Assembly (NCBI RefSeq): GCF_006738645.1
Contig: NZ_AP019700.1
Span: 570,001-634,000, forward strand
Source: Stella humosa
Lineage (GTDB): Bacteria > Pseudomonadota > Alphaproteobacteria > ATCC43930 > Allostellaceae
Direction of reading: 5' to 3'
DNA: 64,000 bases
Of this stretch, positions 5,161 to 12,963 are shown piece after piece. Below the pieces are notes generated by a model. It ran no database searches, was not told where the DNA came from, and worked only from the letters and a program-made list of their open reading frames with translations. How positions within the stretch are numbered: the stretch's first letter is position 1; the number at the start of each line of letters is the position of its first letter. The position numbers and the translations under genes were made by a program.

Positions 5161-6372
5161 TCAGGCCGCTGGGCCGACGATGATCCGGCGCGCCTCCAGG
5201 TCGGCGATGGCCTCGGCGGCGTAGCCGAGCTCGGCCAGCACCGCGCGGGAATGCTCGCCCAGGGTCGGCGCCTCCAGGCGCAGGCCCAGGTCGTGGCTGT
5301 CCATCTCTACCGGCAGCTTGGGCAGCTTGGTCGTGGCCCCGCTCGGCAGGCGGACCGGCATCAGGTAGCCGTTGGCATTCAGTTGCGGGTCGTCGAACAG
5401 GTCCTCGGTCGTCACGACGGGCGCGAAGGGGATCTCCGCCTGCTCCAGCCGGGCGGTTGCCTGGGCACGGTCGAGCCGGGCGATCACGTCGCCCACCAGG
5501 GCCACCAGGCGGGGCCGGGCGGCGACCCGGTCCTCGTTCGATTGCAGCGCCGGGTCGTCGCGGAGCGACGCCAGGCGCGGGTCCTCGTCGGCGAACTGGT
5601 CGCAGAAGCGGTGCCAGTGGCCGTTCGACGTGATGCCGACGAAGACCTGCTCGCCATCTTTGGCGTTGAACGGGTCGTAGACGGCCCAGGCGCCGCGGCG
5701 GGCCGGCATCGGCGGGATCTTCTCGCCGGTGATGGCGTGGCCGGCCATGTGCGAGCCCATCAGGAAGGCGCCGCTCTCGAAGAGCGCGCTCTTCACGAAC
5801 TGGCCTTCGCCGGTGCGGTCGCGCTCGCGCAGGGCGGCCAGGATGGCGATCGCCCCATAGGCCCCGCCCAGGATGTCGATGATGGACGCGCCCGCCCGCA
5901 ACGGCCGCCCGGGCGGCCCGGTCATGTAGGCGATGCCCGACATGAACTGCACGATCTCGTCGAGCGCCGGCCGGTTCTCGTAGGGGCCCGACAGGAAGCC
6001 CTTCAGCGCGCAATAGACCAGCCGCGGGTTGACGCGGCGCGCATCCTCCCAGCCCATGCCGAGCCGGTCGGCGGTGCCGGGGCCGAAATTCTCCAGAAGC
6101 ACGTCGGCGCCGGCCAGCAGCCGGTTCACCACCTCGCGGCCCTCGGGCGTCTTCAGGTCGACGGCCAGGCTGCGCTTGTTGCGGTTGAAGAGGGTGAAGA
6201 AGCCGGACGCGAAGCCGGGCAGCCGCCGCGTGTGGTCGCCGGCCGGCGCCGGCTCGATCTTGATCACGTCGGCGCCGAGGTCGGCCAGGGCCACGCCGCA
6301 GGACGGGCCCATGATCGTGTGCGTCATCTCGACGACACGGATGCCGTCGAGGGGAAGGGGGCGTTCGGTCAT
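5161..6372 (-). CDS. CaiB/BaiF family (class III) CoA-transferase
   Basis: The product is 403 residues, a standard length for class III CoA-transferases, which move CoA between carboxylic acids through an aspartyl-CoA intermediate. The N-terminal PLDGIRVVEMTHTIMGPSCG, then LGADVIKIEPAPAGDHTR and the central LDEIVQFMSGIAYMTGPPGR, match the family. The ATG at 6372 is chosen because the family motif starts five residues later; an in-frame ATG at 6426 is possible but adds atypical sequence. The gene is transcribed away from the lipid A cluster and shares its upstream region. The acyl substrate is not predictable. Confidence 0.88.
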   Translation of the reverse strand: MTERPLPLDGIRVVEMTHTIMGPSCGVALADLGADVIKIEPAPAGDHTRRLPGFASGFFTLFNRNKRSLAVDLKTPEGREVVNRLLAGADVLLENFGPGTADRLGMGWEDARRVNPRLVYCALKGFLSGPYENRPALDEIVQFMSGIAYMTGPPGRPLRAGASIIDILGGAYGAIAILAALRERDRTGEGQFVKSALFESGAFLMGSHMAGHAITGEKIPPMPARRGAWAVYDPFNAKDGEQVFVGITSNGHWHRFCDQFADEDPRLASLRDDPALQSNEDRVAARPRLVALVGDVIARLDRAQATARLEQAEIPFAPVVTTEDLFDDPQLNANGYLMPVRLPSGATTKLPKLPVEMDSHDLGLRLEAPTLGEHSRAVLAELGYAAEAIADLEARRIIVGPAA

Positions 6373-6478
6373 GAGGGGGATCGGCCAACCGCTGCGAGGG
6401 AAGGGAGGTGCGATCAGATTAGACATGAGTGCCGGCTGGGCGAAGAGGCGATTGCGGGGCGTGCGGCGAAGCCGGCCC

Positions 6479-6507
6479 TTGACAGGCGGGCGCCCGGGCG
6501 GTCGGTT
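6479..6507 (+). promoter_or_regulatory. Candidate promoter for the lipid A VLCFA cluster
   Basis: TTGACA at 6479-6484 is a perfect -35 hexamer, but 17 bp further on only a poor -10 (TCGGTT, 6502-6507) is present. It lies 39 bp before the first gene of a seven-gene cluster. The -35 match is notable in such GC-rich DNA; the -10 is weak, so confidence is low. Confidence 0.25.
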
Positions 6508-6545
6508 GGCGGCCCGTTCACCCTCCGACGCGAAGTTCCTTCCAG

Positions 6546-7541
6546 ATGGCGATGCTGCGCCTGAAGCTCCTGTTGCTGCGTTGGGCCACCGCCGTCGGTG
6601 CCGGGCTGGTGACGCTGTTCTTCCTGGCCGCACGGGTCATCCCCTATGACTGGATGGCGGCGTTCGGCGGCGGCTTCGCGCGCCTGATCGGCCCGCACCT
6701 GCGGCCGAGCCGGACAGCGCGGGCCAACCTGGAACTGGCCTTTCCCGAGAAGAGCCCGGCCGAGCGCGAGGCGATCCTGCGTGGCGCCTGGGACAATCTC
6801 GGCCGCACGGCGGTCGAGTACCCTTATATCGGCCGGCTGTGGGACTACGATCCCGAACGCCCCGATGCCACCGGCCGGATCGAGGTGGTGGGGCAGGAGC
6901 ATTTCCTGTCGCTGCGCGACGACGGCCGGCCCGGCATCGTCTTCGCCGCCCACCTCGCCAACTGGGAACTGCTGGCGGTGGCCGCCGCCCGCCACGGGCT
7001 GGAGATCGCCGTGCTCTATCGCGAACCCAACAACCCGGCGATCGCGCGCATCATCCGGCGCATCCGCGGCCAGAACATGGGCCGCCTGATCCCGACCGAC
7101 CTGCGCGGTGGGCTGGCGCTGGTGGGCGTGCTGAAGGGCGGCGGCCATGTCGGCATGCTGGTCGACCAGCATTTCAGCCGGGGACCGCTCGGCCGCTTCT
7201 TCGGCCATCCGGTGCGCACGGCGCCGGCCGCCGCCAAGTTCGCGCGCGCCTTCGACTGCCCGATCCACGGCGCGCGCGTCATGCGGCTGGAAGGCGGCCG
7301 CTTCCGGCTGGAGATCACCCCGCCGCTCGTCCTGCCGCCGCCCTCGGACAATCCGGCCGCCGACGAGGCGGCATTGACCCAGACCATCACCGGCATCATC
7401 GAGGGCTGGGTGCGCGACCGGCCGCAGGACTGGCTGTGGATGCACCGGCGCTGGCGGGTGCCGGCATCGGAGGCCCCAGCCATGCCGCCGGCACCGCAGA
7501 AACACGCGGCGGACGTTGACAAACCGGAAGGCGGCCGATAG
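6546..7541 (+). CDS. Lipid A acyltransferase, LpxL/HtrB family (LpxXL-like)
   Basis: This 331-residue protein has one N-terminal membrane helix (about 8-30) and the lysophospholipid/lipid A acyltransferase fold. The catalytic H-x4-D/E box is visible as HLANWE (about residues 138-143). MLVDQHFSRGPLGRFFG is a second conserved block, and DWLWMHRRW is the typical C-terminal motif. Because acpXL follows directly, it most likely transfers the very long chain (27-OH-C28 type) acyl group from AcpXL to lipid A at the inner membrane, as LpxXL does in Rhizobium. In rhizobia this gene sits at the end of the cluster; here it comes first. Confidence 0.85.
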   Translation: MAMLRLKLLLLRWATAVGAGLVTLFFLAARVIPYDWMAAFGGGFARLIGPHLRPSRTARANLELAFPEKSPAEREAILRGAWDNLGRTAVEYPYIGRLWDYDPERPDATGRIEVVGQEHFLSLRDDGRPGIVFAAHLANWELLAVAAARHGLEIAVLYREPNNPAIARIIRRIRGQNMGRLIPTDLRGGLALVGVLKGGGHVGMLVDQHFSRGPLGRFFGHPVRTAPAAAKFARAFDCPIHGARVMRLEGGRFRLEITPPLVLPPPSDNPAADEAALTQTITGIIEGWVRDRPQDWLWMHRRWRVPASEAPAMPPAPQKHAADVDKPEGGR

Positions 7542-7634
7542 GGCTTCGACGGGTGATCGAGAGGCCGGTTGCGCGCGATCCCGCCGACCTTCTCCCCCCT
7601 GTCCTGCCAACCTGACGAGGCTGCACGGAGTCCC

Positions 7635-7919
7635 ATGGCCGAAACCGTCGATGCCATCGCCGAGATCATCGCCACGACCTGCAACCTCGATCGGGCGACG
7701 ATCACCGCGGACTCCCACATCATCGACGACCTGGGCGTCGACAGCCTGGACTTCCTCGATATCGCGTTCGCGATCGACAAGCGCTTCGAGATCAAGATGC
7801 CGGTCGAGAAGTGGATGGAGGACGTCAATGCCGGCCGCGCCAGCAGCGACGATTTCTTCGTCATGCGCAACCTCGCGGCGCGGATCGACGCGCTGGTCGC
7901 CGCCAAGAGCGCCGGCTGA
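7635..7919 (+). CDS. acpXL: Acyl carrier protein AcpXL
   Basis: This 94-residue acyl carrier protein has its phosphopantetheine site at Ser37 in [13 protein letters not shown]. It is longer than the primary-metabolism AcpP (about 78), and the C-terminal extension containing [11 protein letters not shown] and [12 protein letters not shown] is characteristic of rhizobial AcpXL. AcpXL carries the growing C26-C28 chain for lipid A. The ATG at 7635 aligns with the family start, and an upstream in-frame ATG at 7569 gives unrelated residues. The fabZ, fabF2, fabF1, fabG and MDR reductase genes that follow complete the known VLCFA gene set. Confidence 0.92.
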
Positions 7920-7959
7920 CAGCCGGACGGCCCCCGCCGGCCGTCCGCGCCCCACGGGC

Positions 7960-8445
7960 ATGGAATTCGAATCCTTCCGCCTTGTCGACCAGCTCGAGCG
8001 GCTGACCCTCGACCCCGGCCGCATCGCCATGCGCGGCGTGGTGCCGACCCGCTCCACCATCCTGGACGCCCACTTTCCGGGCCACCCGATCATGCCGGGG
8101 GTGCTGATGGTGGAGGCGATGGCCCAGACCTCCGGCTTTCTGCTGCTGGCGATCAACAAGGCCGAGCGCATGCCTTTCCTGGCCGAAGTGAAGGAGGCCA
8201 AGCTGCGCGCCTTCGTGGCGCCCGGCACCGTGCTGTCGATCGAGGCCGACCTGGAGCATGAGGGCTCCGGCTATGCCGTCACCCACGGCCGCATCCTGCG
8301 CGACGGCAAGCGCGTGGCCGAGGCCGAGCTGCGCTTCCGCACCGTGCCTTTCCCGTCGGCCGAATTGGCGGCGATGACGCGGGCCGAGATGGCGCGCGTC
8401 GGCATCCCGGCCACGGCCGAACCCACGGACGGCGAGCGGGCATGA
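7960..8445 (+). CDS. 3-hydroxyacyl-ACP dehydratase, FabZXL type
   Basis: The product is a 161-residue hot-dog-fold dehydratase. The catalytic His38 and Glu52 are in the block from HFPGHPIMPG to VEAMAQ with the expected 14-residue spacing. It should remove water from 3-hydroxyacyl-AcpXL in each elongation round of the very long chain. The C-terminus extends about 15 residues past the usual FabZ end and overlaps the next gene by ATGA (8442-8445), indicating translational coupling. Its position right after acpXL is the order known from rhizobial clusters. Confidence 0.9.
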   Translation: MEFESFRLVDQLERLTLDPGRIAMRGVVPTRSTILDAHFPGHPIMPGVLMVEAMAQTSGFLLLAINKAERMPFLAEVKEAKLRAFVAPGTVLSIEADLEHEGSGYAVTHGRILRDGKRVAEAELRFRTVPFPSAELAAMTRAEMARVGIPATAEPTDGERA

Positions 8446-9629
8446 CCCCCCCCGGCCGCGAGGTCTGGATCACGGGCGTCGGCCTCGTCTCGTCGCTGGG
8501 CGAGGGACGTGCCGCGCACATGGCGGCGCTGGCCGATCCCGCCCGCATCGCGGCTGGCCGCGACGGCGGCACCTACAGCCCGTTCCATATCCACCCGATC
8601 CGGGAACTGGCGGTCGACCGCTTCATGCCCCGGCGCGCCGACCAGCGCACCACCGGCCCCTGGATGCATTACGGCATCCACGCCGCCGGGCTGGCGCTGG
8701 AAGAGGCGGGCGTGCTGGGCGATGCTGCGCTGCTGGCGGCGACCCACGTGCTGACGGCGGCCGGCGGCGGCGAGCGCGACATCGCGCTCGACGAGGAGAT
8801 CCTGGCCGAGATCGCGGCGATGGAAGCGCCCGAGGTGCTGATCAACCGGCGCCTGACCGAGGGGCTGCGGCCGACCGCCTTCCTGGCCCAGCTATCGAAC
8901 ATGCTGGCCGGCAACCTGTCGATCGTGCTGGGGCCGGCTGCATCCAGCCGCACCTTCATGGGCGAGGAGTCGGCCGGGGTCGAGGCGCTGCGCGTCGCGT
9001 GGCGCCGGGCGGCGACCGGGCAGGGCGACCTGTTCCTCGTCGCCGCGGCCTACAATTCCCTGCGCGCCGACATGCTGCTGCAGCACCAGACCGGCGGCCG
9101 CCTGCTCCAGGGGCCGTGGCGCGACCTGTGGGACCGGCCGGCCGGCGGCATGTGCCTCGGCAGCATGGGGGCGGCCCTGGTGGTGGAAAGTGCCGACCAC
9201 GCGGTGGCCCGCGGCGCGCGGCCGATCGCGCGGCTGGCCGACATCGCCCATGGCTGGTCCAGGCGCGAGCCGGGCGCCGCCGCGGCCCTGGCCGCCGCAT
9301 CCTGGCCAGACGCGGTTGCGGGCCGGACGCTGGTATTGAGCGGGGCCAGCGGCGCCGGTCCGATCACTGCCGAGGAGAAGGCGTTCCTGGCCGGCCAGGG
9401 TGGCGGCATCGCCGTGCGTGGCACGGCCGCCGCCATCGGCCATGGGGTGGAGGCCTCCTTCGCGGCCAATGTGGCGCTCGGCGCCTGGTGCGCGCAGGCG
9501 CAGTTCGCCTTCCCGCCGCTGTCGGCGGACCCGGTCGAGGTGGTGGCCGGTGCGATAGAGCGGGTCGCGGTGACGGCCTGGGGTGCCCGCCGTGGCGAGG
9601 GGCTGGCCTTGCTGGAGCCCGTCGCATGA
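8442..9629 (+). CDS. Ketosynthase-like FabF2XL lacking the active-site cysteine
   Basis: This 395-residue thiolase-fold protein opens with VWITGVGLVSSLG as KAS II enzymes do. Where the nucleophilic cysteine motif is expected it reads LGPAASSRTFMGEESAG, with no Cys. The NAHGTGT histidine block is also replaced (LSGASGAGPITAEE), while IGHGVEASF keeps the third-site histidine. It is therefore probably not a condensing enzyme on its own but a KS-beta/chain-length-factor-like partner of the intact FabF1XL encoded next. Coupling to both neighbours is tight: ATGA overlaps at 8442-8445 and 9626-9629. This pairing is inferred from type II polyketide KS-alpha/KS-beta heterodimers. Confidence 0.85.
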   Translation: MTPPGREVWITGVGLVSSLGEGRAAHMAALADPARIAAGRDGGTYSPFHIHPIRELAVDRFMPRRADQRTTGPWMHYGIHAAGLALEEAGVLGDAALLAATHVLTAAGGGERDIALDEEILAEIAAMEAPEVLINRRLTEGLRPTAFLAQLSNMLAGNLSIVLGPAASSRTFMGEESAGVEALRVAWRRAATGQGDLFLVAAAYNSLRADMLLQHQTGGRLLQGPWRDLWDRPAGGMCLGSMGAALVVESADHAVARGARPIARLADIAHGWSRREPGAAAALAAASWPDAVAGRTLVLSGASGAGPITAEEKAFLAGQGGGIAVRGTAAAIGHGVEASFAANVALGAWCAQAQFAFPPLSADPVEVVAGAIERVAVTAWGARRGEGLALLEPVA

Positions 9630-10870
9630 CGCGGTCCGTCGCCATCACCGGCACCGGGCTGGTCACGTCGCTGGCCCGCGGCGTCGAGGCGAACTGGACG
9701 GCCTTGCTGGCCGGCTGCTCCGGCATCCGCCGTATCACGCGCTTCCCGGTCGAGGGGCTGAAGGTCACCTTCGGCGGCGCGGTCGACCATATGGGGCTGG
9801 ACGCGCTGCCGGCCAGTGGCCGCTGCCTTGCCATGGGCCAGGCGGTGGCCGCCGAGGCGCTGGCGCAGGCCGGGCTGGCGGGCCAGTCCTTTGCCGGGCC
9901 GCTGGTGCTGGCCCTGCCGCCGGTCGAGATCGAGTGGCCGCAGCGCCGCCGGCTCGCCCACCTGGCGGCGCTGCCGACCTATGCCGGCATGCTGGCGGTG
10001 GCCGATGGCGGGTCGGAAAGCCCGGCCCATGTCGATTTCCTGTTCGCGACCGTGGGCGACCGGCTGGCCGAGGCGTTCGGCACCGAGGGCCCGCCCATCA
10101 CGCTGTCGACGGCCTGTGCCTCGGGGGCGACCGCCATCCAGACGGCCGTCGAGGCGATCCGGCGCGGCGACTGCGAGCGCGCGCTGGTGATCGGCAGCGA
10201 GGGCTCGCTGCAGGTGGAGGCGCTGATCCGCTTCGGCCTGCTGTCGGCCCTGTCGACCCGCAACGACGATCCGGCGGGTGCGGCGCGCCCGTTCGCCCAG
10301 GATCGCGACGGCTTCGTCATGGCCGAAGGGGCAGCCGCCCTGGTGCTGGAACGTGCCGACCTGGCCGATGCCCGCGGCGCGCGGCCGCTGGCCTATGTCC
10401 GGGGCTGCGGCGAGGCGGCCGACACCTTCCACCGCACCCGCAGCAACCCCGACGGCAGCGCCATCGTGCGCGCCATGGCCGGCGCCATCGCCGATGCCGG
10501 GCTGACGCCCGACGACATCGACCATGTGAACGCGCACGGCACCGGCACGCCCGAGAACGACAAGATGGAATGCCTGGCGATGGAACTGGTGTTCGGCGCG
10601 CGCGCCGGCGCCGTGCCCGTCACCGCGAACAAGTCGATGATCGGCCATACGCTGAGTGCGGCGGGCGCCATCGAGGCCGTCGTCTCGGTCCTGTCGCTCG
10701 ACCGCCAGATCCTGCCGCCGACGATCAATCGCGATACGCCCGATCCGGCCATCGCGCTGGACATCGTCAGCGGCGCGGCGCGGCCGGCGGCCGTGCGCAC
10801 CGTCCTTTCCAACTCGTTCGGCTTCGGCGGCCAGAACGTCTCGCTCGTCCTGGGGCTCGACCCGGAATGA
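9626..10870 (+). CDS. 3-oxoacyl-ACP synthase II, FabF1XL type
   Basis: This 414-residue beta-ketoacyl synthase keeps the full catalytic set: Cys164 in STACASGATA, His in VNAHGTGTPEND and His in KSMIGHTLSAAG. FGFGGQN closes the C-terminal core. It should catalyse chain elongation of acyl-AcpXL toward C28, probably as a heterodimer with the cysteine-less FabF2XL encoded immediately upstream. The start ATG overlaps the upstream stop (ATGA, 9626-9629), and its own stop overlaps the next start (10867-10870). A longer open frame upstream is only the shadow of fabF2XL. Confidence 0.92.
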   Translation: MTRSVAITGTGLVTSLARGVEANWTALLAGCSGIRRITRFPVEGLKVTFGGAVDHMGLDALPASGRCLAMGQAVAAEALAQAGLAGQSFAGPLVLALPPVEIEWPQRRRLAHLAALPTYAGMLAVADGGSESPAHVDFLFATVGDRLAEAFGTEGPPITLSTACASGATAIQTAVEAIRRGDCERALVIGSEGSLQVEALIRFGLLSALSTRNDDPAGAARPFAQDRDGFVMAEGAAALVLERADLADARGARPLAYVRGCGEAADTFHRTRSNPDGSAIVRAMAGAIADAGLTPDDIDHVNAHGTGTPENDKMECLAMELVFGARAGAVPVTANKSMIGHTLSAAGAIEAVVSVLSLDRQILPPTINRDTPDPAIALDIVSGAARPAAVRTVLSNSFGFGGQNVSLVLGLDPE

Positions 10871-11592
10871 CGGCGGGCGGCGGGCAGGGCCGGCGCGTGC
10901 TGGTGACCGGCGGCGGCCGCGGCATCGGGGCGGCCATCGTCCGCTGCCTGGCGGACGCCGGCTATGCCGTCGACTATACCCACCGCCGCGAAGCGGGCGC
11001 CGGGCCCGGCCGGCCGATCGCCTGCGACCTGGCCGACCGCGCGGCGGTCGACGCCCTGGCGGAAGCGGGGGCGGGGGCGGGCTATTACGGCTTCGTCCAC
11101 AATGCCGGCCTGACCTACGACCGCCTGGCCGCCATGGTCGACCAGGACCAGGGCGAGGCGGTGATGCAGGTGAATTTCTGGGCGATGACCCGGCTGGTGA
11201 AGGCGCTGGTGCGGCCGATGACGGCGGCCGGCGGCGGCCGCATCGTCCTGGTGGGCTCGGTCGCGGCCCTGGCCGGTGGGCGCGGCAATGCGATCTATGC
11301 CGCTTCCAAGGCGGCCGCGCTGGGCTACATGCGCACGCTCGTGCAGGAGGTCGCGCGCAAGGGCGTGACCGCCAACTATGTGGCCCCCGGCTTCGTCGAC
11401 ACCGAGATGATGGCGGCCTACGGCGCCCATCGCGCGCGGCTGGAGGCGCAGATCCCGGCCGGCCGCTATGCGGCCGCGGGCGACGTGGCGGCGGCGGTGG
11501 GCTTCCTGCTGTCGGACGCCGCCGGCTACGTCAACGGCGCGGTGCTGCCGGTCGATGGCGGGCTGTCGTCGGCGATGGCCGTGCAGCGATAA
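10867..11592 (+). CDS. 3-oxoacyl-ACP reductase, FabG-like SDR
   Basis: The product is a 241-residue classical short-chain dehydrogenase/reductase. TGGGRGIGAAI binds NADP(H), VHNAGLTYDRL is the NNAG-type block, and YAASKAAALG holds the catalytic Tyr and Lys. Ser lies in LVGSVAALAGG, and PVDGG is near the C-terminus. It is translationally coupled to fabF1XL and should reduce the 3-ketoacyl-AcpXL product. As I recall them, rhizobial VLCFA clusters rely on housekeeping FabG, so a dedicated SDR here is a local addition that makes the elongation set self-contained. Confidence 0.88.
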   Translation: MTAGGGQGRRVLVTGGGRGIGAAIVRCLADAGYAVDYTHRREAGAGPGRPIACDLADRAAVDALAEAGAGAGYYGFVHNAGLTYDRLAAMVDQDQGEAVMQVNFWAMTRLVKALVRPMTAAGGGRIVLVGSVAALAGGRGNAIYAASKAAALGYMRTLVQEVARKGVTANYVAPGFVDTEMMAAYGAHRARLEAQIPAGRYAAAGDVAAAVGFLLSDAAGYVNGAVLPVDGGLSSAMAVQR

Positions 11593-11603
11593 AGGGGTCG
11601 ACG

Positions 11604-12632
11604 ATGCAGGCGCTGCGGCTGATGGCCGAACGGCAGCTGGAACTGGTGGAGATGGCCGATCCCCCGCCGCCCGCCGCCGACGAGGTGCAGGTGCGGGTGC
11701 GCGCCGTCGCCCTCAACCATATCGACCTGTGGGGCTTCCGCGGCATGGCATTCGCCAAGCGCACCCTGCCGCTCACGGTCGGCGTCGAGGCGGTGGGCGA
11801 GGTGGCTGCCGTCGGCGCCGATGTCCGCACTCATCGCCCGGGCGACCGCGTGGCGCTCTATGGCGGACGCACCTGCGGGGTGTGCCAGGCCTGCCGCCAG
11901 GGCCGCGACAATCTCTGCGCCGACGTGACGGGGATCGCCGGCTTCCATGTCGACGGCTTCGCGCGCACCGCCTGCAACCTGCCGGCGCGGCTTTGCGTGG
12001 CGATCCCGGACGGGTTGTCCTGGACGGATGCCGCCTGCGCGCCGCTGACCTTCGCCACGGTCGAGCACATGCTGTTCGACAATGCCCGCCTGATGGCCGG
12101 CGAATGGATCCTGATCCATGCCGCCGGCAGCGGCATCGGCTCGGCCGCGATCCGTCTTGCCAAGGACCAGGGCGCCACGGTGATCGCGACGGCGGGCGAC
12201 GACGCCAAGCTGGAAAAGGCGCTGGCGCTGGGCGCCGACCATGTCGTGAACTATCGCACGCAACGGTTCGAGAGCATGGCCCGCCGGCTGACCGGCAAGC
12301 GCGGCGTCGATGTCGTGTTTGAGCATGTCGGCCCCGACACCTGGTCGGGCAGCCTGCTGGCACTCTGCCGCGGCGGCCGGCTCGTCACCTGCGGGTCGAC
12401 GGGCGGCATCCTGGCCGAGACCAACCTGTTCCAGGTCTTCCAGCAGCAACTGCGGATCTTCGGCTCGTTCGGGGCGACGCGGCGGAACGTGCGCGACGTG
12501 CTGGCGCGCATGGCATCCGGCCGGGTCGCAGCCGTGATCGACAGCGTCATTCCGCTCGACCGCTGGTCGGAGGGGCTGACCCGGCTGGAGGAGCGCCGGG
12601 TGTTCGGCAAGATCGTGGTGACGATGCCCTGA
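11604..12632 (+). CDS. Zinc-type MDR oxidoreductase (Adh2XL-like)
   Basis: This 342-residue medium-chain dehydrogenase/reductase has a GroES-like N-terminal half. Its structural-zinc cysteines lie in CGVCQACRQGRDNLC, and its NAD(P)-binding Rossmann motif is HAAGSGIGSAAIRLA. In rhizobial lipid A VLCFA clusters the equivalent gene is called adh2XL and is thought to supply the enoyl reduction or the 27-hydroxylation-linked redox step; the exact role is not established. It starts 11 bp after the SDR stop with gggg as ribosome site and is the last gene of the coupled cluster. Confidence 0.85.
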   Translation: MQALRLMAERQLELVEMADPPPPAADEVQVRVRAVALNHIDLWGFRGMAFAKRTLPLTVGVEAVGEVAAVGADVRTHRPGDRVALYGGRTCGVCQACRQGRDNLCADVTGIAGFHVDGFARTACNLPARLCVAIPDGLSWTDAACAPLTFATVEHMLFDNARLMAGEWILIHAAGSGIGSAAIRLAKDQGATVIATAGDDAKLEKALALGADHVVNYRTQRFESMARRLTGKRGVDVVFEHVGPDTWSGSLLALCRGGRLVTCGSTGGILAETNLFQVFQQQLRIFGSFGATRRNVRDVLARMASGRVAAVIDSVIPLDRWSEGLTRLEERRVFGKIVVTMP

Positions 12633-12639
12633 GCGGACC

Positions 12640-12855
12640 CTACGCGCGCAAACGCGCCGTCAGGGCCGCGGCAACGCCGAAAGCCATGGCCAGCGCTGCC
12701 AGGGCGATTGCCCCGGCCGGGTCCGTGGCGGGTGCCGCCATCGACACGGTGGCGGCATGGGCCGTCGGGTTGGCGAGCGCCGCTGCATTCGCGAACAGGG
12801 CGGCAAGGGCGCTGGCTGCGGCCGGCAGGATGGTGGCGAGGCGGGATGACGGCAT
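12640..12855 (-). CDS. Small hydrophobic membrane protein, function unknown
   Basis: This 71-residue frame on the opposite strand, 7 bp from the end of the MDR gene, encodes two hydrophobic segments (about 8-30 and 46-66) rich in alanine. The third codon positions are strongly G/C like the surrounding genes. A GGAG ribosome site lies 7 nt before the ATG, which is the main reason to accept it. The N-terminal segment could instead be a signal peptide cut near AHA. I do not recognise a family. It could be spurious, since alanine-rich frames are common at this GC content. Confidence 0.45.
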   Translation of the reverse strand: MPSSRLATILPAAASALAALFANAAALANPTAHAATVSMAAPATDPAGAIALAALAMAFGVAAALTARLRA

Positions 12856-12963
12856 GGCTGAACTCCGGTTGCCCGCGTCCGTCGCGCCGGGGCGGCGGTC
12901 GGTTCACCGGATCGGCTTCAGCATCCCTTGCCGCGGACGCGGCCTGCGTGTAGCCATCGAGCC

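What the first reader, a model, noticed from the sequence alone, without database searches (positions are those of the whole stretch)
8442..10870. KS-alpha/KS-beta-like pair: FabF2XL lacks the cysteine and one histidine of the catalytic triad
FabF1XL has STACASG, NAHGTGT and KSMIGH, while its neighbour has GPAASSRTF at the cysteine position and no NAHGTGT block. The arrangement copies type II polyketide KS and chain-length factor. A lipid A C28 chain needs length control, so FabF2XL may act as the ruler in a heterodimer.
Basis: partly seen in the sequence, partly recalled or inferred. Interest (0 to 1): 0.55.

Follow-up and report, generated by a model that had tools for sequence, protein, structure and literature searches.

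The report
Dead synthase partnered with live one
Two neighbouring genes for making the extra-long fatty acid of the bacterial outer membrane look like a working enzyme and an obligate non-working twin, a pairing known from antibiotic pathways but so far labelled as two ordinary enzymes here.

Summary
FabF1XL (9626-10870) keeps the full ketosynthase active site. FabF2XL (8442-9629) has lost the nucleophile, one histidine and the active-site lysine, and keeps one histidine. One detail is wrong: the cysteine position is not GPAASSRTF but Glu176 in MGEE, four residues further on. The Glu-Glu is invariant: 46 of 46 profile-picked FabF2XL, the window's own included, and 91 of 91 in a larger, partly pattern-picked set. 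No alternative cysteine is conserved. FabF2XL models confidently as a complete FabF fold, so it is a maintained pseudo-ketosynthase, not a decayed gene. It occurs essentially only with FabF1XL, beside AcpXL, FabZ, Adh and LpxXL. Published mutants show that fabF2XL is needed for the very-long-chain lipid A acid. A synthase-dead protein that is nevertheless required is best explained as the non-catalytic half of a KS-CLF-like heterodimer. Genes and pathway are known; the papers seen and NCBIfam call both proteins beta-ketoacyl-ACP synthases.

The parts
8442..9629 (+). FabF2XL: pseudo-ketosynthase (KS-beta-like), 395 aa; Cys to Glu176, His303 to Ser303, Lys335 to Ala329, His334 kept
   Evidence: (NF005084, 403.9 bits, cut-off 320)
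8964..8969 (+). invariant Glu175-Glu176 codons at the position of Ala162-Cys163 of FabF
9626..10870 (+). FabF1XL: ketosynthase with intact Cys164, His304, Lys336, His341
   Evidence: (best NCBIfam hit NF005076, 593 bits, below its cut-off of 629)
10115..10117 (+). Cys164 codon of FabF1XL (nucleophile)
9626..9629 (+). ATGA overlap of the fabF2XL stop and the fabF1XL start
7635..7919 (+). AcpXL, acyl carrier protein of the VLCFA pathway
   Evidence: NF005079, 140 bits, cut-off 83
7960..8445 (+). FabZ-like dehydratase (fabZXL); overlaps fabF2XL by ATGA
   Evidence: PF07977
10867..11592 (+). FabG-like ketoreductase, additional to the rhizobial six-gene set; overlaps fabF1XL by 4 bases
11604..12632 (+). 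zinc-type dehydrogenase (adh2XL-like)
6546..7541 (+). LpxXL-like lipid A acyltransferase, here upstream of acpXL
   Evidence: NF005120, 368 bits, cut-off 273

Best explanation
FabF1XL and FabF2XL form a KS-CLF-like heterodimer that elongates acyl-AcpXL to the very-long-chain acid of lipid A. FabF1XL does all the chemistry. FabF2XL has the complete ketosynthase fold but no nucleophile, so its own acyl pocket stays empty; sitting across the dimer axis it can close off or extend FabF1XL's acyl channel and so permit, and perhaps limit, chains far longer than a FabF homodimer makes. Shown here: loss of catalytic residues, invariance of the replacement, intact fold (predicted), strict pairing and gene coupling. 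Shown in print: fabF2XL is needed for VLCFA in Agrobacterium. Inferred: the physical heterodimer, the shared channel, length control and the product of this organism.
For: Catalytic residues: Glu at the cysteine position in 46 of 46 and 91 of 91 (biased set); FabF1XL intact in 45 of 45 and 88 of 88. No conserved alternative cysteine: only two columns reach 20% Cys (residue 18 in 31 of 91, residue 273 in 20 of 91) and 11 of 91 have Cys at the His303 column. Fold: AlphaFold pLDDT 91.6, pTM 0.92, with Glu176 starting a helix after the strand 169-172; VIA-align Z 45.6, rmsd 2.5 over 374 residues to FabF 2rjt_A. Pairing: FabF1XL (E up to 1e-120) in 14 of 289 genomes of the class, all 14 among the 15 with FabF2XL over its cut-off; the fifteenth FabF2XL hit lies at a contig end. 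FabF1XL beside FabF2XL on the same strand in 45 of 46 loci and in all 85 non-redundant pairs measured. CLF-like signature: -AEQAGG- in 1tqy_B. Need: the A. fabrum fabF2XL insertion mutant has no VLCFA in lipid A and is partly complemented by a fragment carrying fabF2XL (PMC11901934, passages and sections 8 and 14); S. meliloti fabF1XL and fabF2XL mutants both have a growth disadvantage (PMC5539429, passages). Precedents for KS plus non-KS heterodimers: ApeO-ApeC (PMC8358021, passages), AmcF-AmcG (PMC10698177, passages).
Against: No direct evidence of a complex; only monomers could be predicted. A coupling analysis of 55 paired loci (Neff 38.6) showed no excess of FabF1XL-FabF2XL couplings over cluster controls (too shallow to decide). 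FabF2XL scores best against FabF structures, not CLFs, and the data do not show that it groups with CLFs. It has Glu, not the Gln of the polyketide CLFs seen here. Complementation in A. fabrum was partial, so polar effects on fabF1XL are not excluded. Homodimeric KasA of mycobacteria makes very long chains (recalled), so a dead partner is not required for length in general. One named genome (Xanthobacter tagetidis, L087) has the two genes at separate places.
Confidence: 0.68

Rival explanations
1. FabF2XL is a KSQ-like decarboxylase: Glu176 in place of Cys mimics the Gln of loading ketosynthases, and FabF2XL decarboxylates malonyl-AcpXL to prime or supply the pathway.
For: Gln at the cysteine position is the hallmark of decarboxylating KS variants (recalled), and Glu is close to it; one histidine (His334) is kept in 44 of 46 and 82 of 91.
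Against: The other histidine is gone in every row and the active-site lysine is replaced in every row. The VLCFA pathway extends existing fatty acids and needs no new starter (established knowledge).
Confidence: 0.08
2. FabF2XL is a scaffold or chaperone of the pathway: it binds AcpXL or stabilises FabF1XL, possibly as a heterodimer, without touching chain length.
For: Strict pairing and the need for fabF2XL are equally explained. AmcG, a heterodimer partner without functional motifs, has no known role in length control (PMC10698177, passages).
Against: The complete KS fold with an invariant motif exactly at the active-site loop suggests a role at the active site or dimer axis, not general scaffolding.
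Confidence: 0.17
3. FabF2XL is catalytic by an unrecognised chemistry, with Glu176 or another residue as nucleophile, and both proteins are separate synthases for different chain lengths.
For: NCBIfam and the papers seen name both proteins beta-ketoacyl-ACP synthases, and both genes matter.
Against: No conserved cysteine; His303 and Lys335 equivalents lost. A glutamate acyl-enzyme is not known for this fold (recalled).
Confidence: 0.04
4. FabF2XL is a decaying pseudogene product kept by linkage.
For: It diverges more than its partner: mean column identity 62% against 71%.
Against: Invariant motif and intact frame in the lineages read, confident fold, retained in a genome where the cluster was split, and required in A. 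fabrum.
Confidence: 0.01

Closest known systems
acpXL-lpxXL VLCFA cluster of rhizobia and Agrobacterium (FabF1XL/FabF2XL)
   Same: Same gene families; AcpXL, FabZ, FabF2XL, FabF1XL in the same order as in Sinorhizobium meliloti; same Glu-Glu in S. meliloti FabF2XL.
   Different: lpxXL lies upstream of acpXL and a FabG-like gene follows fabF1XL; the genes from fabZ to fabG overlap by ATGA. Product of this organism not known.
Type II polyketide KS-alpha / chain length factor (actinorhodin, 1tqy)
   Same: Adjacent KS pair, one with an intact active site and one without nucleophile; acid at -1 and Gln/Glu at the cysteine position.
   Different: Glu instead of Gln; lysine lost and one histidine kept, whereas the two Streptomyces CLFs read keep the lysine and lose both histidines; VLCFA pathway, not a polyketide; common origin neither shown nor rejected.
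ApeO-ApeC of aryl polyene synthesis
   Same: KS plus non-KS heterodimer in a fatty-acid-like pathway of Gram-negative bacteria (PMC8358021, passages).
   Different: ApeC is about half size with one thiolase-fold domain (237 aa in L122); FabF2XL is full length with both.
AmcF-AmcG of cispentacin synthesis
   Same: KS with an unrecognised non-KS partner shown to be a heterodimer (PMC10698177, passages).
   Different: One elongation plus cyclisation, not repeated elongation.
FabF (KAS II)
   Same: Fold of FabF2XL and active site of FabF1XL.
   Different: FabF is a homodimer of two live subunits (recalled); FabF2XL cannot supply a live one.

Membership tests
FabF2XL family (NCBIfam NF005084) | profile score over the curated cut-off | tested here: met
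   403.9 bits against 320; the next-best genes in the class survey fall to 94 bits, a clean gap
FabF2XL family (NCBIfam NF005084) | sits in an acpXL-fabZ-fabF1XL-adh-lpxXL neighbourhood | tested here: met
FabF1XL family (NCBIfam NF005076) | profile score over the curated cut-off | tested here: not met
   593 bits against 629; 7 of the 14 FabF1XL in the class survey also fall short, so the cut-off is narrower than the clade; filed by clade, see next row
FabF1XL (by descent) | groups with S. meliloti FabF1XL in a tree | tested here: met
   18 FabF1XL rows are one side of a branch, support 100/100
Type II PKS KS-alpha / CLF heterodimer | one subunit with Cys-His-His-Lys, the partner without the nucleophilic cysteine | tested here: met
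Type II PKS KS-alpha / CLF heterodimer | Gln at the cysteine position of the partner | tested here: not met
   Glu in 46 of 46; Gln in 1tqy_B and in the two Streptomyces CLFs read
Type II PKS KS-alpha / CLF heterodimer | physical heterodimer with a channel at the interface | not testable with these tools
   only single chains could be predicted; coupling test inconclusive
Type II PKS KS-alpha / CLF heterodimer | partner belongs to the CLF clade | tested here: inconclusive
   AU test does not reject FabF2XL plus CLF as one clade (p 0.462), nor FabF2XL plus FabF1XL (p 0.471)
Type II PKS KS-alpha / CLF heterodimer | polyketide biosynthetic gene cluster | tested here: not met
   lipid A VLCFA cluster
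KSQ-type decarboxylase | Gln at Cys with both histidines and the lysine kept | tested here: not met
   Glu176, Ser303, Ala329; only His334 kept
FabF / KAS II active synthase (for FabF2XL) | nucleophilic cysteine at the start of the active-site helix | tested here: not met
   Glu176 there
FabF / KAS II fold (for FabF2XL) | two-domain thiolase fold of KAS II | tested here: met
   Z 45.6 to 2rjt_A, 374 residues aligned

The most novel reading that the evidence does not exclude
The VLCFA of alphaproteobacterial lipid A is built by an obligate heterodimer of one live and one dead ketosynthase, in which the dead subunit lends its empty acyl pocket so that one chain can occupy a channel running across the dimer axis. 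This would be a chain length factor of membrane lipid metabolism, with a Glu-Glu signature of its own, hidden because databases call it a synthase.
Probability: 0.45. Interest if true: 0.7.

Novelty: new variant of a known kind. Interest (0 to 1): 0.5.

Why it matters
How some bacteria extend ordinary 16-18 carbon chains to 26-30 carbons for lipid A is known genetically but not mechanistically. If FabF2XL is a length-controlling dead subunit, the question of what sets the length becomes a two-protein experiment, the standing name 'beta-ketoacyl-ACP synthase' for this family is wrong, and KS-CLF pairing is shown to serve membrane lipids as well as polyketides and pigments. The VLCFA matters for symbiosis and envelope strength in rhizobia.

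Tried and rejected
Cysteine at GPAASSRTF: rejected; profile and multiple alignments put Glu176 there.

Alternative cysteine nucleophile: rejected; no column of FabF2XL reaches even half Cys.

FabF2XL as a direct member of the polyketide CLF clade: tested by tree and AU test, undecided. FabF2XL sits on a long branch (2.7 changes per column), so the tree cannot place it. ApeC (half size) was left out of the tree.

Chain-length positions: I looked at the region homologous to FabF 96-175 to compare gate residues; its first part is too gapped between FabF1XL, FabF2XL, FabF and CLF, and no claim is made.

Heterodimer by residue coupling: 55 loci with all five genes, reduced alphabet; FabF1XL-FabF2XL pairs were not enriched among the strongest (22 in the top 50, 25.3 expected) and neither were control pairs. 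Inconclusive.

CLFs among fold matches: the 50 rows listed by VIA-align are FabF/FabB-type or mitochondrial KS entries; the Foldseek list holds 6kxd_A and chains B and K of 6smp, both KS-CLF entries, and I did not check which subunit chain K is. By sequence profile, 6smo_C (371 aa) matches at E 2.2e-16. The absence of other CLF chains from short lists excludes nothing.

Promoters and terminators by consensus: none found at 6300-12900. Defence-system models: none.

One search translated the acpXL region in the wrong frame, so one search found no family for it; corrected with 7635-7919.

Literature: gene names fabF2XL/fabF1XL occur in four held papers. In the A. fabrum paper 'ketosynthase', 'chain-length factor' and 'heterodimer' occur 0 times; passages on the genes were read in the other three, without a remark on the missing cysteine in what I saw. 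Searches for a CLF reading. This covers open-licence papers only; Haag 2011, Basu 2002 and Du 2020 (names recalled) are not held, so 'not in print' is not claimed.
Full report
What is there. The window carries a seven-gene run on the + strand: lpxXL-like 6546-7541, acpXL 7635-7919, fabZ-like 7960-8445, fabF2XL 8442-9629, fabF1XL 9626-10870, fabG-like 10867-11592 and a zinc-type dehydrogenase 11604-12632. From fabZ to fabG each stop overlaps the next start as ATGA. AcpXL, FabF2XL and LpxXL pass the curated NCBIfam cut-offs (NF005079 140 bits against 83, NF005084 404 against 320, NF005120 368 against 273); FabF1XL's best model is NF005076 at 593 bits, below its cut-off of 629. The cluster is the known VLCFA-lipid A cluster of rhizobia; in Sinorhizobium meliloti the order is acpXL, fabZ, fabF2XL, fabF1XL, dehydrogenase, lpxXL.

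The observation. FabF1XL has Cys164, His304, Lys336 and His341. FabF2XL has none of the first three: aligned to E. coli FabF, Cys163 is Glu176, His303 is Ser303, Lys335 is Ala329, and His340 is kept as His334. The window's genome has one further close FabF-type match to FabF1XL, a housekeeping FabF.

How general. I collected FabF2XL in two ways. By profile in whole genomes: 15 of 289 genomes of the class, 35 of 398 of the phylum and 5 of 61 relatives, 49 genomes in all, of which 46 gave loci, the window's own among them. All 46 have Glu-Glu at Ala162-Cys163 (close relatives were not thinned out). By DNA pattern in named genomes: 80 loci (577 relatives were found and the best 80 kept; one of the two patterns was SRTFMGEE, so these cannot be used as independent evidence for that motif). 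In the joint set of 97 rows, 91 after dropping six at 95% identity or more, Glu is at the cysteine in 91 of 91, His303 is never His, Lys335 is never Lys (one row has a gap at each), and His340 is His in 82; the 88 partners have Cys, His, Lys and His in 88 of 88. No other cysteine is conserved: residue 18 is Cys in 31 of 91, residue 273 in 20 of 91, and the His303 column is Cys in 11 of 91. In one search the score falls from 371 bits to 94 bits between FabF2XL and the next gene, so no intermediate form was seen.

Pairing. With the same 289 genomes, FabF1XL at E up to 1e-120 occurs in 14, all among the 15 with FabF2XL over cut-off. The fifteenth, G227, has its FabF2XL at a contig end and no close FabF1XL (630 contigs, contamination 10). 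In 45 of the 46 profile-picked loci FabF1XL lies on the same strand in the locus (the exception is that G227 locus). Of the 80 named loci two lack FabF1XL nearby: L055 ends 202 bases after FabF2XL and its genome has FabF1XL at the start of another contig, and Xanthobacter tagetidis (L087) has FabF1XL, dehydrogenase and LpxXL at another place. Among 85 non-redundant pairs all are on one strand, with a median of 72 bases from the FabF2XL stop to the first aligned FabF1XL residue and a maximum of 948; AcpXL and FabZ are in the locus for 82 of 85.

Structure. AlphaFold2 gives FabF2XL with mean pLDDT 91.6 and pTM 0.92; Glu176 opens helix 176-191 after strand 169-172. FabF1XL: 92.6 and 0.94. FabF2XL aligns to FabF 2rjt_A with Z 45.6, rmsd 2.5 over 374 residues. 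By established knowledge of the thiolase fold, the strand before the active-site cysteine pairs across the dimer axis, so the conserved SRTFMGEE stretch would lie at the interface with the partner; this was not modelled, because only single chains could be predicted here.

Comparison with CLFs. Actinorhodin CLF (1tqy_B) reads -AEQAGG- and two Streptomyces plasmid CLFs -SDQAGG- at the position where FabF2XL has -GEE[x][AS]G-. So both kinds have an acid before, and Gln or Glu at, the cysteine position. They differ in that these CLFs keep the lysine and lose both histidines, while FabF2XL loses the lysine and keeps one histidine. In a tree of 49 rows FabF2XL and FabF1XL are each one side of a branch (100/100), with a branch of 2.7 for FabF2XL. 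Joining FabF2XL with FabF1XL (p-AU 0.471) or with the CLFs (0.462) is not rejected, so one origin or two cannot be told.

Function in print. In Agrobacterium fabrum C58 an insertion in fabF2XL leaves lipid A without VLCFA, and a plasmid with a 1513-bp fragment containing fabF2XL restores it partly (PMC11901934, passages and sections 8 and 14). In S. meliloti, insertions in fabF1XL or fabF2XL cause a growth disadvantage in MOPS medium (PMC5539429, passages). In Bradyrhizobium ORS278 no mutant of acpXL, fabZXL, fabF1XL or fabF2XL could be obtained (PMC5613085, passages). The A. fabrum paper labels both gene products 3-oxoacyl-ACP synthase II and the Oligotropha paper labels both beta-ketoacyl-ACP synthase (PMC7663294, passages). 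A protein that by its residues cannot form the usual acyl-enzyme, yet is needed for the product, is what a KS-CLF pair predicts. That A. fabrum FabF2XL itself lacks the cysteine was not read here; it is inferred from the invariance in the family.

Mechanism. FabF1XL carries the chain and condenses. FabF2XL, with the same fold but no nucleophile, sits across the two-fold axis; its acyl pocket is free and may continue the channel of FabF1XL. This would relieve the clash of two long chains meeting at the axis of a homodimer. In the aryl polyene ApeR homodimer the two cavities do join across the dimer (PMC8358021, passages), which shows that such a channel is possible. Mycobacterial KasA makes long chains as a homodimer (recalled), so the argument is not compelling by itself. 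A coupling analysis of 55 loci gave no signal for FabF1XL-FabF2XL nor for controls.

Verdict. The finding is real. The dead-subunit reading is strong, the heterodimer likely, the ruler role open. The pathway, gene names and mutant phenotypes are known; the reclassification of FabF2XL is, as far as the papers and profile libraries searched here show, not made. I therefore rate it a new variant of a known kind, interest 0.5.

Noticed in passing
10867-11592: A FabG-like ketoreductase follows fabF1XL with a 4-base overlap. It is not in the rhizobial six-gene set but lies directly after fabF1XL (under 400 bases) in 29 of 85 non-redundant pairs.
   Followed up: partly
6546-7541: lpxXL lies upstream of acpXL here, whereas in S. 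meliloti it is the last gene of the cluster.
   Followed up: partly
L116 4974-7495 (Bradyrhizobium sp. Ash2021 plasmid): A fabF2XL-fabF1XL pair with GEE on a plasmid typed as conjugative, next to a methyltransferase gene and without AcpXL, FabZ, dehydrogenase or LpxXL in the 11 kb: an orphan pair that may serve another product.
   Followed up: partly
L087 and L126 (Xanthobacter tagetidis): The cluster is split: acpXL-fabZ-fabF2XL at one place, fabF1XL-dehydrogenase-lpxXL at another.
   Followed up: partly
window genome G000 and relatives: Patchy occurrence: all four genomes searched of the window's genus have FabF2XL, none of the 39 searched from another family of the same order has (E up to 1e-40).
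   Followed up: no
L120 4301-5602 (Streptomyces sp. NBC_01003 plasmid): A second ketosynthase with Ala at the cysteine position beside a live one, in a malonyltransferase/ACP cluster; of the four comparators scored against the FabF2XL profile it scores highest (101 bits; E. coli FabF 88.6).
   Followed up: partly
FabF2XL at 8442-9629, as named by NCBIfam NF005084: The family model names the protein beta-ketoacyl-ACP synthase (equivalog), although all 46 profile-picked members read here lack the nucleophile.
   Followed up: yes
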